A stretch of 64,000 bases of DNA from Kribbella antiqua (GTDB taxonomy: Bacteria > Actinomycetota > Actinomycetes > Propionibacteriales > Kribbellaceae), in assembly GCF_004345665.1 (NCBI RefSeq), contig NZ_SLWR01000001.1, positions 558,001 through 622,000 of the forward strand, given 5' to 3'. Below, piece after piece: positions 19,455-23,938 of the stretch; within the stretch, counting starts at the first letter, position 1, and every line of letters begins with the position of its first letter. The notes under the pieces were generated by a model, which was not told the DNA's origin, did no database searches, and worked only from the letters and a program-made list of their open reading frames with translations. The position numbers and the translations under genes were made by a program.

Positions 19455-21011
19455 ATGACCAACCGCAGCGACAGGCAGACAGCCGACGTGCTGGTGCTTG
19501 CCAATATGCTCGAGAAGCTGCGCACGCATGAAGGTCTCACCGTCGCCCGTCTGCACGCCGGCCGGTCCGGGATCGCGGAGCCGCTGATGGAGCTCGCCGC
19601 GACCCGCCGGTTCGCGAGCGTGCACGAGCTCGACGTCGCCACCGCGGCCTTCGACCTGGTCGTGAACTGCGTCCGCGACGACCTGCACGGCACCCAGCAG
19701 ATCGTCGCCGACGCGATCCTCGCCCTCGGCCTGCACGCCGATACGCACGCCCGCTTCGGCGTCGACGACCGGGTCATCCGCTCCCTCTACAGCACCTCCC
19801 TCGGCCGCCGACGGGAAGCGCTGCTCAACCACTGGCACCGGTTGCACGAGGCCGTCGGTCACCAGCCGACCGAGGCCCCGAGCGACCGGGCCCTCCGCGG
19901 TACGACGGAACCCGCCGTACTGCGGGAGCTCGCCAACCAGCTCGTCCGCCGCGAGATCTACTCGGTCGGCTCGAAGACCGTCGTGATGCTCGACGCGGCG
20001 CCCGCAGCCGCCACCCAGCCCGCCGCGCCGCCGGCCGGCCGGGTCGTGGTGGTCGGCGGTGCGGTGATGGACGCGACGTGGCGGATCAAGAACCTGCCGG
20101 CGCCGGAGACGTCGAGTGAGGCCTACGGCTTCGACCTGTCACCCGGCGGCAAGGCGCTGACGCAGGCGGTCGCGACCGCGCGGCTCGGGCTGCAGACGTC
20201 ACTGATCGCCGCGGTCACCGACGACCGGTTCGGCGAGGAGATCATGCAGTACCTCGAGGACGAGGGCGTGGACACGTCCCTGGTCAAGCGGGTGCGCGGC
20301 CGCCGTACGCCGTTCACGGGAGTCTTCGAGAAGGAGCTGGGCGACAGCATCGCGGTCAACTGGCGGAACCAGAGCGACGTACATCTGGCGCCGGAGGACA
20401 TGGACGAGCGGCGCGATCAGCTGGTCGACTGCGACGCGTTGCTGGTGACCTTCGAGGTGCCGCGGGAGACGATGCAGCGCACGCTCGCACTCGCGCCCCG
20501 CGGTGTGGACAACCGGCCGATCGTGGTCGTCACACCAGGTCAGCCGTACGTCGACGAGCGCATCTCGCGGGACGCCTTCCCCCGGATCGACTACCTGGTG
20601 GCGCACCCGTGGGAGCTGAGGAATTTCACGTCCCAGGGCCAGATGCCGTTCGATCCCGACCCGGTCGCGCGGAACCTGCTCGCGTTCGGGGTGGAGTCGC
20701 TCTGCATGCTGGTCAACGGCGGCTGCACGGTCTATTCAGGCCCCGCCCACGAGGTCATCAGCGTTCCGACCATCCCCTCGATCTACAAGGAGTCGGCGAC
20801 CTCCCGCGACGCCTTCTGCGCGGCGCTGGCGGCCAAGCTGATCGACAACGGCGGGAAGTTCTCCGGTCAGGTCGCGCTGTGGGCGGCGGCCGCCATGTCC
20901 TGCGCGACCGCCGACTTCCCACTCACCAACTCGATGCCGGACCGCAAGCGCATCGACGCATTGCTGGCCCGCTCGCCGTTCACCGTCAACGGCGGAGGCG
21001 GCGTCGGCTAG
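19455..21011 (+). CDS. PfkB/ribokinase-like protein with extra N-terminal domain
   Basis: A 518-residue protein. Residues 1-190 form an unrecognised helical N-terminal domain (a PfkB fusion). From about 200 the ribokinase fold begins: VVVVGGAVMDATWRIKNLP, GGKALTQAVATARLG (normally GGKGANQA) and ITPG-like VVVTPGQPYVD. The signature DTxGAGD is replaced by ESATSRD: the catalytic-base Asp is kept but the Gly-rich anion hole is lost. Kinase activity is therefore doubtful, and a sugar-sensing regulatory role is possible. Its 3' end overlaps the converging Mom-like gene by 26 bases. Confidence 0.75.
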   Translation: MTNRSDRQTADVLVLANMLEKLRTHEGLTVARLHAGRSGIAEPLMELAATRRFASVHELDVATAAFDLVVNCVRDDLHGTQQIVADAILALGLHADTHARFGVDDRVIRSLYSTSLGRRREALLNHWHRLHEAVGHQPTEAPSDRALRGTTEPAVLRELANQLVRREIYSVGSKTVVMLDAAPAAATQPAAPPAGRVVVVGGAVMDATWRIKNLPAPETSSEAYGFDLSPGGKALTQAVATARLGLQTSLIAAVTDDRFGEEIMQYLEDEGVDTSLVKRVRGRRTPFTGVFEKELGDSIAVNWRNQSDVHLAPEDMDERRDQLVDCDALLVTFEVPRETMQRTLALAPRGVDNRPIVVVTPGQPYVDERISRDAFPRIDYLVAHPWELRNFTSQGQMPFDPDPVARNLLAFGVESLCMLVNGGCTVYSGPAHEVISVPTIPSIYKESATSRDAFCAALAAKLIDNGGKFSGQVALWAAAAMSCATADFPLTNSMPDRKRIDALLARSPFTVNGGGGVG

Positions 21012-21963
21012 CCGCCGGCACCGGCTCTGTTTCACCCTTGACACGGCAGCAGAAGATCAGCGAGTCCAGCAACTTGGCTCGGCTCTGCTCGAAGCGGCCG
21101 CCGGGATTGGCCTTGCGGAGCTCACTCAGATTCGCGCCGCCGAAGCGGGTGCGCAGTTGGCGCGGGCTGGCGTAGACGCTGTCGACGTACAGGTAGGGAC
21201 GCGCCTCGATCGACATCCATTCCTGCCAGTTGGCAGCCCGGTAGCTGGATCCGGTGAAGCCGAGATTCGGATCGACGGCGGTGGTGAGCAGTTGCACGCC
21301 CGGGACCTCGCGCCGGACCACCTGCCGGACTTTCGCCAGGAGATAGGAGATCGCATTCACGGGGGCGACGTCGAAGGAATACACCCGGGACACGTCCCAG
21401 ACCGCCTGCATCGGTACGTCGAACTGGGTCTGCAGTTGCCGTCCGACCTTCATCCATTCCAGCGGCGAAACGCTGCACAACGTCACCGGCAGCAGGTTCA
21501 CCGGGTCCACCAGGGCGAAGTTCAGCGAGCCGGCCCGGGCGCTGCGCAGGTAATGCAGATTGCTGAAGATCTGGTCCGCGTCACTGCTCGGAACCCGCAC
21601 GAAACGCAGGTCGGTGAGATCGAATTTGTCTTTCGGAATGAGACTTTCGATATCGCGTTGATCGCGCCGTAACCGGGCCGCGTTGCGATTCAGTTCGGCG
21701 ATCACCTGAGTCCGGCTTACTGTTCCGTTGGGCCGCGCCAGCCGGGGTAAGTGAAGCAAGGTCCGGACGCTCAGCGCGCGACTCGGAACGCCGTGCCTGC
21801 GCACGGCGTCGGTCAGCAGGTCGGCGAAGCCCGGTGCATGCATTCGGCAATCATCGAGCGAAAGCCGAGGCGCTTGAGGTGGCACTGGGGACCTCGGAGC
21901 TACTGGGACTGGAGGCGGTGGGACGACCGCGGAAGCCACCGGACCGGTGGGCGTGATTACCAC
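20986..21963 (-). CDS. Mom-like GNAT-fold protein
   Basis: A 325-residue protein with a Pro-rich N-terminus and a central region that looks like phage Mu Mom/DUF4338-type GNAT-fold proteins: NFALVD, VYSFDVAPVNAISYLL, then VDPNLGFTGSSYRAANWQEW, a motif close to the G-x-x-Y-x-A-x-x-W of Mom relatives. Mom itself modifies adenine in phage DNA. No phage genes, methylase or partner are adjacent here, so DNA modification is only a hypothesis. The GTG at 21963 is the first start. The 365-base upstream region carries a striking array of GCCA motifs, and one 16-base element of it is repeated inside this gene. Confidence 0.5.
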   Translation of the reverse strand: MVITPTGPVASAVVPPPPVPVAPRSPVPPQAPRLSLDDCRMHAPGFADLLTDAVRRHGVPSRALSVRTLLHLPRLARPNGTVSRTQVIAELNRNAARLRRDQRDIESLIPKDKFDLTDLRFVRVPSSDADQIFSNLHYLRSARAGSLNFALVDPVNLLPVTLCSVSPLEWMKVGRQLQTQFDVPMQAVWDVSRVYSFDVAPVNAISYLLAKVRQVVRREVPGVQLLTTAVDPNLGFTGSSYRAANWQEWMSIEARPYLYVDSVYASPRQLRTRFGGANLSELRKANPGGRFEQSRAKLLDSLIFCCRVKGETEPVPAASRRRLRR

Positions 21964-22017
21964 CCGAGAATGCTAGCGGACAGTTGCCGCGACCTCGCAA
22001 CTTCCCAAGCAGACGAG

Positions 22018-22192
22018 TTTTGGCGGCGTGTTGCCACCCTTCCTGCCAGTTGGCAAGCGCAGGTTTGCCAACTGGCGGCGAACGGTACGCCAAAAGCTAC
22101 CGGCGTATCGCCGGCCGTTGCCAAATCCTCACCTCCCGGTCGGGGCAATGCGCCAAAATCATGTCCGGACAAAGAAGACAGTGCCAAATTTT
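22018..22192. promoter_or_regulatory. Helically phased GCCA(A/N) motif array
   Basis: Seven same-strand GCCA motifs start at 22033, 22045, 22067, 22089, 22120, 22152 and 22183, with spacings 12, 22, 22, 31, 32 and 31 bases, close to 1, 2, 2, 3, 3 and 3 helical turns. The last four share GCCAAA. A reverse-oriented TTTTGGC lies at 22018-22024. The array fills the divergent gap between the Mom-like gene (minus) and the small membrane protein gene (plus), so it is a candidate multi-site operator. A further dyad GACAACCGATTGTC (22200-22213) overlaps a TTGACA -35-like element. Confidence 0.55.
22045..22076. repeat. Perfect 12-base inverted repeat inside the array
   Basis: GCCAGTTGGCAA (22045-22056) is repeated as its exact reverse complement TTGCCAACTGGC (22065-22076) with an 8-base spacer. 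Each arm is itself a GCCA-N2-TGGC dyad, so it could bind two dimers. The 16-mer TTCCTGCCAGTTGGCA (22040-22055) also occurs at 21220-21235 inside the Mom-like gene. Confidence 0.75.
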
Positions 22193-22328
22193 CTGGATTG
22201 ACAACCGATTGTCGCGGCGTTCACTGAAAGCGTAACCACCACCGCCGATCAGCCGCCTCACTCTAACCCAGCAGCGGCAAAAGACAAGTAGCCCAAGGGA
22301 AGTGAACCGAAGGAAAAGAGGACACGCC

Positions 22329-22484
22329 ATGCCTCCCAACGAATTCGTCGCGACAATCGTCGTCCTGGCCAGCGCGATACTCCTGATCTCCTTCTGGAAA
22401 CAGATTCTGTTCATTCTGCTCTTCGGAGTGGTCATGGTCTTCTGCTTCGGCCTCTACAACGTCGCAACCGCCATGGGCCGCTGA
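22329..22484 (+). CDS. Small single-pass membrane protein
   Basis: A 51-residue protein. A short polar start (PPNEFVAT) is followed by one long or two closely packed hydrophobic segments (IVVLASAILLISFWK and ILFILLFGVVMVFCFGLY). The ATG at 22329 is chosen because AGAGGA lies 6 bases upstream; a GTG at 22302 would add nine basic residues. A strong intrinsic terminator follows 18 bases after the stop, so it is transcribed alone. The function is not known. Confidence 0.6.
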   Translation: MPPNEFVATIVVLASAILLISFWKQILFILLFGVVMVFCFGLYNVATAMGR

Positions 22485-22502: not shown

Positions 22503-22534
22503 CCCGCCCGGGACTGTCCCGGGCGGGTATTTTT
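22503..22534 (+). terminator. Intrinsic terminator
   Basis: CCCGCCCGGGAC (22503-22514) pairs with GTCCCGGGCGGG (22516-22527), in practice a 10-11 base stem with a small loop, followed by TATTTTT. It ends the small membrane protein transcript. The amidase start lies only 15 bases further on, so the amidase must have its own promoter overlapping this hairpin. Confidence 0.9.
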
Positions 22535-22549
22535 CGTAGGCTCGCAGAC

Positions 22550-23938
22550 GTGAGTGACTCCGCCGCGGATCTCAGCCTGACCGAGGTGCTCCCATTACTG
22601 GAGCAGCGCAAACTCTCCGCGCGCGAACTCGTCGAGGATTGCCTGCGCCGGATCGACCTCGCCGAGGCCGCGATTCGGGCCTTCGTCACCCGCACTCCCG
22701 GACTTGCACTCGCCGCCGCGCAGCGCGCCGACGAGGCCCGGGCGAAAGGTGAGCCGTGTGGACCACTGGCCGGCGTACCGGTCGCGGTCAAGGATCTCTT
22801 CCTCACCAAAGGAGTGCTCACCACCGCAGGAAGCCAGGTCCTCGCCACCTACGTCCCGGCCGAGGACGCCGCCGTCTGGGAGCGTCTCGCTGCCGCCGGA
22901 GCGGGCCTGCTCGGCAAGACCACCACGCACGAGTTCGCCTACGGTACGGCGTCCGCGCCGACAGCCAACCCTTGGGACGTACGCCGTACTCCCGGTGGAT
23001 CGTCGGGCGGATCCGCAGCCGCGCTGGCCGCACGCATGGCGCCGATCGCGACCGGGACCGACACCGGTGGTTCGCTGCGCATCCCGGCCGCGGCCTGCGG
23101 GGTAAGCACTCTTCGCAGCGCCCACGGCCGCATCTCCCGGTACGGCGTGATCCCGCTGAGCCCTTCGTTCGACGTCGCCGGGCCGATGGCACGCCGGATG
23201 CTCGACATCTCCATCCTGATGCGAGTGCTGGCCGGACGTGACCCCCGTGACCAGGCGACGCGTGACGAGCCATGTCCGTCGTACCCACTCGAACCGCCGC
23301 GCGATCTCGCCGGGGTCCGCATCGGCCTGCCGATCGATATGTCCTGGAAGCACGTGGACGAGCGAATCGCGGTCGTCTGCCGGGAGGCGCTCGGACTACT
23401 GGTCGCGCGGGGCGCGCAACTGGTCGAGATCGACACCCCGCCGAACGCGAAGGTGGTCCTGGAGAAGTCCACCGGCGTCTTCGACACCATCAACGAGACC
23501 GAGGCGCACCAGATCCACGACCCGCTGGTCCCGCACAGCCACCTCTACACGCCGCAGGTGCGCGAACGCGTCCGCAAAGGCGAACAAATCAGCAAGCAGC
23601 GGTACGACGAAGCCCTCCGCCTCCGGCAGCTCTGGACGCAGGACTGGCGCAGCATCCTCACCACGCACCGCCTGGACGCGATCGCCCACCCGACAATCGA
23701 TGCGGCCCCTCCGCTCATCGATCCCGCCGGACCGCCGAAAGGACCACGGATCCGGCTCTCGGTCCCCTGGTCGATCGCCGACTTCCCAGCGCTCAGTGTG
23801 CCCGCCGGGTTCGACGAGCGCGGCCTACCGGTGGGCCTGTCGCTGGCAGGACTCCCCGAACGCGAAGCGGAGCTCCTCGGCCTCGCCATCCTGATCGACG
23901 AGGAACTGCAACTCTGGCGACACGGCCCGCCTGTCTAA
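22550..23938 (+). CDS. Amidase signature-family enzyme
   Basis: A 462-residue amidase. The catalytic triad of the family is visible: Lys81 in VAVKDLF, cis-Ser151 in GGSSGGS and the nucleophile Ser175 in TDTGGSLRIPAA. Such enzymes hydrolyse carboxamides or, in GatA, transfer ammonia; no gatB/gatC genes are near, so a free-standing amidohydrolase is likely. The GTG start at 22550 follows a terminator T-run by 15 bases with no ribosome binding site, suggesting a leaderless mRNA. Its 3' end overlaps the converging siderophore gene by 4 bases. Confidence 0.88.
   Translation: MSDSAADLSLTEVLPLLEQRKLSARELVEDCLRRIDLAEAAIRAFVTRTPGLALAAAQRADEARAKGEPCGPLAGVPVAVKDLFLTKGVLTTAGSQVLATYVPAEDAAVWERLAAAGAGLLGKTTTHEFAYGTASAPTANPWDVRRTPGGSSGGSAAALAARMAPIATGTDTGGSLRIPAAACGVSTLRSAHGRISRYGVIPLSPSFDVAGPMARRMLDISILMRVLAGRDPRDQATRDEPCPSYPLEPPRDLAGVRIGLPIDMSWKHVDERIAVVCREALGLLVARGAQLVEIDTPPNAKVVLEKSTGVFDTINETEAHQIHDPLVPHSHLYTPQVRERVRKGEQISKQRYDEALRLRQLWTQDWRSILTTHRLDAIAHPTIDAAPPLIDPAGPPKGPRIRLSVPWSIADFPALSVPAGFDERGLPVGLSLAGLPEREAELLGLAILIDEELQLWRHGPPV

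What the first reader, a model, noticed from the sequence alone, without database searches (positions are those of the whole stretch)
22018..22192. Helically phased array of GCCA motifs in a divergent promoter region
Seen: same-strand GCCA motifs at 22033, 22045, 22067, 22089, 22120, 22152 and 22183 with spacings of 12, 22, 22, 31, 32 and 31 bases, all close to whole helical turns; the last four are GCCAAA. The gap is 365 bases without a gene, between the Mom-like gene and a 51-residue membrane protein gene. Inference: such phasing is what cooperative binding on one DNA face or an iteron-type element would give. It is not a pattern I can tie to a named regulator.
Basis: partly seen in the sequence, partly recalled or inferred. 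Interest (0 to 1): 0.72.

Follow-up and report, generated by a model that had tools for sequence, protein, structure and literature searches.

The report
Helically phased operator array, Kribbella cassette
A real and conserved row of protein-binding-type DNA sites, spaced so that all face the same side of the double helix, sits in front of a tiny membrane-protein gene in Kribbella bacteria; it occurs essentially once per genome, travels with its neighbouring genes, and points to an undescribed regulator, probably the sugar-kinase-like protein encoded next to it.

Summary
All seven GCCA coordinates check; four of the only six GCCAAA in the 64-kb window lie here. With reverse-strand TGGC included, the element is a set of full and half sites of the dyad TGCCAATTGGCA. 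It survives both refutation tests. In 14 clade representatives (13 Kribbella lineages plus Paractinoplanes) there are 68 sites against 18.7±4.0 in shuffles. Their dyads fall on one 10.5-bp grid anchored to a conserved -35 hexamer, although the DNA between sites is mostly unalignable. The array belongs to the 51-aa membrane-protein gene, not to a shared divergent promoter: it stays with that gene where the Mom-like gene lies elsewhere. It is part of a cassette: PfkB-like protein with a novel N-terminal domain (1-3 copies), Mom-like protein, array, small membrane protein. PfkB-like and Mom-like genes occur in the same 30 of 38 Kribbella genomes; the cassette recurs in three Micromonosporaceae genomes. 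In another actinobacterial genus, genes for the same PfkB-like family carry their own single-copy TTGCC arrays at exactly 20-bp spacing. Best reading: a cooperative operator array for a dedicated regulator, most likely the PfkB-like protein, probably repressing. No binding was shown; the regulator's identity is inferred.

The parts
22019..22024 (-). Reverse half-site TTTGGC, dyad about -178 from the -35 hexamer
22033..22036 (+). GCCA half-site (TTGCCACC), dyad -160
22044..22055 (.). Full palindrome TGCCAGTTGGCA, dyad -148; one of only two TGCCARTTGGCA in the 8.1-Mb genome, the other being coding DNA of the Mom-like gene
22066..22077 (.). Near-perfect palindrome TGCCAACTGGCG, dyad -126; with the previous one forms the pair 20-22 bp apart seen in most relatives
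22089..22094 (+). GCCAAA half-site, dyad -104
22119..22125 (+). TGCCAAA half-site, dyad -73
22152..22157 (+). GCCAAA half-site, dyad -41
22182..22188 (+). TGCCAAA promoter-proximal half-site, dyad -10; a CCA is retained at about this position in all 20 Kribbella orthologues
22198..22203 (+). Conserved -35 hexamer TTGACA; as a TTGNC element it also sits on the 10.5-bp grid (dyad 0)
   Evidence: grid position read from sequence
22209..22213 (+). Conserved spacer element TTGTC (TTGCC or TTGAC in relatives), dyad +11, on the grid
   Evidence: grid position read from sequence
22220..22227 (+). Conserved -10-like region TTCACTGA (not a good TANNNT)
22252..22278 (+). 5' UTR inverted repeat GCCGC/GCGGC around conserved CTCTAACCC
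22329..22484 (+). 51-aa membrane protein gene, the presumed target; invariant W23, Q25, F38, G41, Y43
22503..22527 (+). Intrinsic terminator; the small gene is probably monocistronic
20986..21963 (-). Mom-like gene (Pfam PF25680; PHROG 1384), cassette member
19455..21011 (+). PfkB-like protein with a ~170-aa all-helical N-terminal domain of no known family and a degenerate kinase motif (ATSRDAF where ribokinase has TAAGDAF); candidate regulator

Best explanation
The array is the operator region of the 51-aa membrane-protein gene. A dimeric regulator recognises TGCCAATTGGCA. It binds one or two strong palindromes, in most genomes about 95-150 bp upstream of the -35, and, through cooperativity on one face of the DNA, fills weaker half-sites at whole-turn distances down to the promoter, where the grid runs through the -35 hexamer and the spacer. 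SHOWN by sequence: sites, dyad symmetry, phasing, promoter anchoring, conservation, near single-copy status, linkage to the small gene, co-occurrence with the cassette. INFERRED: that a protein binds; that it is encoded in the cassette (about 0.75); that it is the PfkB-like protein (about 0.6); that it represses by covering the -35 region (about 0.55, against activation).
For: Phasing: pooled dyads n=108, R=0.60 at 10.5 bp, a single spectral peak with its 5.25 harmonic; GCCA and its overlapping words rank first to fourth of 136 four-letter words. Excess: 68 sites against 18.7±4.0 (maximum 34 of 1000); within-genome phasing 44.1 against 13.5±3.1 (maximum 26.8 of 3000). Held-out diverged arrays: V test u=3.3; two further Micromonosporaceae arrays, all sites: u=2.6. 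Target: array upstream of all 20 detected small genes, including genomes where the PfkB gene's 3' end takes Mom's place. Locality: TGCCARTTGGCA occurs about once or twice per genome, mostly in this locus. Cassette: PfkB-like and Mom-like genes share the same 30 of 38 genomes; cassette in three Micromonosporaceae genomes, in P. ovalisporus with different flanking genes. PfkB family: in another genus 98 of 118 genomes have a PfkB-N gene; TTGCC is the most enriched 5-mer upstream, with spacings of 20 and 40 bp, and the array pattern occurs exactly once in each of 14 genomes, upstream of that gene.
Against: No binding data. The PfkB N-terminal domain matches no HTH family, has no clear PDB fold match and is near neutral in charge. 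The outgroup motif (AATTGCC, direct, 20 bp) is similar but not identical to the Kribbella site. Most Kribbella PfkB genes lack the array at their own promoter. Homology among Kribbella genomes reduces the independence of the phasing test. Repression versus activation is undecided: the poor -10 would also fit activation.
Confidence: 0.55

Rival explanations
1. Same operator array, but bound by the Mom-like protein or by a chromosomal regulator encoded elsewhere, with the PfkB-like protein acting as enzyme or effector.
For: Mom co-occurs as perfectly as PfkB. The PfkB N-domain has no recognised DNA-binding fold.
Against: Distant Mom homologues stand without a palindrome in about 13 kb, whereas PfkB-N genes in another genus have their own phased arrays. 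Arrays travel with the cassette to another family and are nearly single-copy, unlike targets of a global regulator.
Confidence: 0.3
2. The regulator activates the promoter: strong distal sites load it and the proximal half-site about 10 bp upstream of -35 contacts RNA polymerase.
For: Proximal site at a class-II-like position in the orthologues; poor -10.
Against: The grid continues through the -35 and the spacer; in the outgroup the third repeat (TTGMC) appears to occupy a -35-like place (read from sequence), which fits occlusion better.
Confidence: 0.35
3. The element is an RNA or cruciform hairpin rather than a protein-binding array.
For: Arms 22045-22056 and 22065-22076 are perfectly complementary; single-strand folding z=-3.9.
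Against: Any two copies of a palindrome are complementary; many relatives keep one palindrome plus half-sites with no partner; no Rfam match; a 10.5-bp grid is a DNA, not RNA, property.
Confidence: 0.04
4. Chance clustering of a short motif.
For: GCCA is short and common (451 in the window).
Against: Shuffles and relatives.
Confidence: 0.01

Closest known systems
BldC operators (Streptomyces whiI, smeA-sffA; PMC5859096)
   Same: Actinobacterial promoter arrays with sites on one helical face filled by cooperative multimers, varying in number of repeats.
   Different: BldC repeats are AATTNNNNC direct repeats about one turn apart, bound head to tail; here the unit is a GC-containing dyad TGCCAATTGGCA at 2-3 turn steps in both orientations.
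Phased operator sets of looping or cooperative dimeric regulators (lac and lambda repressors, LysR-type strong distal plus weak proximal sites; own knowledge)
   Same: Strong palindromes cooperating with weaker sites at whole-turn spacing near the promoter.
   Different: More sites; a genus-wide common grid through the core promoter; no recognised HTH regulator encoded next to it.
ROK-family repressors (sugar-kinase fold with N-terminal HTH; own knowledge)
   Same: Would be the analogy for a sugar-kinase-like regulator with an N-terminal DNA-binding domain.
   Different: The protein here is PfkB/ribokinase, not ROK, and its N-domain has no recognised HTH.
Phage Mu Mom (Pfam PF25680)
   Same: The neighbouring gene encodes a Mom-family protein.
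   Different: Chromosomal, with an extra N-terminal region, in a cassette with a PfkB-like and a small membrane protein; activity untested.

Membership tests
Helically phased dyad operator array | Repeated dyad-symmetric sites in excess of chance | tested here: met
Helically phased dyad operator array | Whole-turn spacing conserved in relatives and tied to a promoter | tested here: met
Helically phased dyad operator array | Bound by a protein that changes transcription | not testable with these tools
   needs EMSA, footprint or reporter
BldC-type direct-repeat operator | AATTNNNNC direct repeats about one turn apart | tested here: not met
   sequence of 21964-22328 against the consensus in PMC5859096
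Iteron (replication or plasmid control) | Identical direct repeats next to a replication initiator gene | tested here: not met
   neighbours are PfkB-like, Mom-like, small membrane protein and amidase genes; sites are mixed palindromes and half-sites
ROK-type sugar-kinase-fold repressor | ROK domain | tested here: not met
   only PfkB PF00294 is matched
ROK-type sugar-kinase-fold repressor | N-terminal helix-turn-helix | tested here: inconclusive
   all-helical N-domain, pLDDT 90, no clear fold or family match
PfkB/ribokinase family (protein 19455-21011) | PfkB domain above the curated cut-off | tested here: met
   79.4 bits against 25.8
PfkB/ribokinase family (protein 19455-21011) | GAGD-type anion-hole motif | tested here: not met
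   ATSRDAF; aspartate kept, glycines lost
Mom family (protein 20986-21963) | Pfam Mom profile above the curated cut-off | tested here: met
   41.5 bits against 27.1

The most novel reading that the evidence does not exclude
PfkB-like proteins with this N-terminal domain are an undescribed class of sequence-specific transcription regulators (kinase-fold sensors) that work through dedicated, single-copy, helically phased arrays; in Kribbella and some Micromonosporaceae one of them controls a cassette with a DNA-modifying Mom homologue and a two-helix membrane protein, conceivably a phage-defence or cell-state switch.
Probability: 0.4. Interest if true: 0.82.

Novelty: new variant of a known kind. 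Interest (0 to 1): 0.62.

Why it matters
It gives a clean genomic case of helical phasing kept by selection while sequence turns over. It names a dedicated target gene. It also points to a large actinobacterial protein family (98 of 118 genomes in one genus) with no recognised DNA-binding domain as a likely new kind of regulator, testable with one gel shift. It places a chromosomal Mom homologue in a tightly regulated cassette.

Tried and rejected
(1) The second TGCCAGTTGGCA, at 21224 inside the Mom-like gene, as a remote operator: it encodes the conserved peptide AANWQ and its synonymous GCC/GCG position is not kept, so incidental. (2) A genome-wide regulon: exact TGCCANNTGGCA and TGCCAA pairs elsewhere in the genome are at the level of the backwards control. 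(3) PADLOC and PHROGs for a named defence system: none, only Mom in PHROGs. (4) Rfam: none. (5) Fold search of the PfkB N-domain: no significant match, which does not show a new fold. (6) A literature search for the palindrome found nothing; a promoter search for Kribbella and Mom/PfkB searches found nothing on this cassette in the listed hits. (7) The sigma-70 consensus scan did not call the TTGACA promoter; its -10 region does not fit the consensus required by the scan. (8) RNAalifold predicted no consensus structure for the 5' UTR, although a hand-specified stem covaries.

Full report
OBSERVATION. Shuffling the 365 bases makes such an array rare (P about 2e-4 for four GCCAAA, 2e-4 for count and phasing together). 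Counting both strands changes the picture: TGGC at 22021, 22051 and 22073 makes two sites into the palindromes TGCCAGTTGGCA and TGCCAACTGGC(G), 22 bp apart.

CONSERVATION. The genome is a Kribbella: same-genus contigs carry that name. Searches of 38 genomes of the genus give the Mom-like gene in 30, the small membrane protein in 20 by tblastn, and the PfkB-like N-domain in 30. The Mom and PfkB lists are the same 30 genomes. More diverged small membrane proteins were then found at the locus in the genomes examined that tblastn had missed, except G002, where one was seen only by eye downstream of the array. Upstream of all 20 detected small genes lie GCCA/TGGC sites and a promoter of the type TTGACA-CC-ATTGNC-TTCACTGA; each has at least one palindrome within one mismatch of TGCCANNTGGCA. 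Apart from three close relatives (and short pieces in two more), blastn cannot align the array region, so the sites are kept while the DNA between them changes.

PHASING. If each half-site is assigned the dyad of the palindrome it belongs to, dyads from all genomes fall at about -10, -31, -41, -52, -62, -73, -94, -105, -115, -126, -136, -147 and further from the -35 hexamer: one 10.5-bp grid, with different slots filled in different species. Pooled Rayleigh R=0.60, n=108, single peak at 10.5. With 14 clade representatives and phase left free per genome, phasing exceeds 3000 random placements and the site count exceeds 1000 shuffles. Arrays not used to form the hypothesis (five diverged Kribbella, two Micromonosporaceae) agree. 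The proximal CCA is present in nearly all Kribbella promoters; TTGACA (dyad 0) and the spacer TTGNC (dyad +11) also fit the grid, read from the alignment.

WHICH GENE. In G004, G006, G020, G024, G027 and G032 the small gene is not divergent from Mom; the 3' end of a PfkB-like gene lies upstream, and the array is still immediately upstream of the small gene. A terminator follows the small gene. So the small gene is the target; Mom may share the array only where it is divergent.

CASSETTE AND REGULATOR. PfkB-like (1-3 copies), Mom-like, array and small gene recur in Paractinoplanes ovalisporus and two other genomes of its family. In P. ovalisporus they have other neighbours than in Kribbella (an FtsX-like permease, a peptidase-like and an alpha-galactosidase-like gene, judged by eye from the ORFs). 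The palindrome TGCCARTTGGCA occurs once in the 11.4-Mb P. ovalisporus genome. This favours a regulator encoded in the cassette. Distant Mom homologues have no palindrome near them. Distant PfkB-N homologues, present in 98 of 118 genomes of another genus, lack the palindrome where examined but have their own array: TTGCC is the most enriched 5-mer upstream, spaced 20 and 40 bp, and CATTTGCC-N10-14-CAATTGCC occurs exactly once in each of 14 genomes, upstream of that gene. The ten bases CAATTGCCGT are shared with the core promoter of one Kribbella clade. Hence the PfkB-like protein is the leading candidate. Its kinase motif is degenerate and its N-domain is a confident all-helical model without a recognised relative, so DNA binding is inferred, not shown.

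MECHANISM. Strong palindromes load dimers; weaker half-sites at whole turns carry the complex to the promoter. Because the grid runs through -35 and the spacer, and because in the outgroup a repeat seems to occupy the -35 position, repression is slightly favoured; the weak -10 leaves activation open.

NOVELTY. Phased operators are a known kind; the motif, the cassette, the grid through the core promoter and the probable regulator class are not in the papers found. Limits: the genomes are unnamed; the genus data are not phylogenetically independent; -35 anchors were assigned by pattern plus a few variants. The 14 genomes were chosen among those whose upstream sequence had already shown the pattern, so that call tests uniqueness per genome and not prevalence.

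Noticed in passing
window 22252-22278 and orthologues: The 5' UTR of the small gene holds an inverted repeat around a conserved AATCTAACCCA; in 17 sequences the stem covaries (14 both-side changes, 0 of 500 shuffles), although RNAalifold finds no consensus and one clade uses another register.
   Followed up: partly
L168-L196, L134-L135, upstream of PfkB-N genes: In another actinobacterial genus PfkB-N genes carry TTGCC/TTGAC direct repeats at exactly 20 bp in front of the gene; the array pattern is single-copy in all 14 genomes tested.
   Followed up: yes
L128 about 6890 (K. soli) and L155 about 9795 (G011): In this clade the palindrome GCCAATTGGC lies at the promoter of the first PfkB-like gene, which suggests autoregulation there.
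   Followed up: partly
L075 position 1501 (G029): TTGCCAATTGGCAA lies just upstream of what reads as an XRE-type regulator gene in a genome without the cassette.
   Followed up: no
L089 (G002) and L100 (G028): The PfkB-like reading frame is interrupted in these genomes (429 and 320 aa instead of about 510).
   Followed up: no
window 21221-21236 and 22041-22056: An exact repeat TTCCTGCCAGTTGGCA links the Mom-like coding region and the array; explained by the peptide AANWQ and judged incidental.
   Followed up: yes
L121: A contig labelled Streptomyces sp. SID13031 carries the Kribbella-type cassette and matches a genome classed in the same genus as the window; the label is probably out of date.
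   Followed up: no
window 22530-22550: The downstream amidase looks leaderless: a TAGGCT hexamer ends about 10 bases before its GTG start.
   Followed up: no
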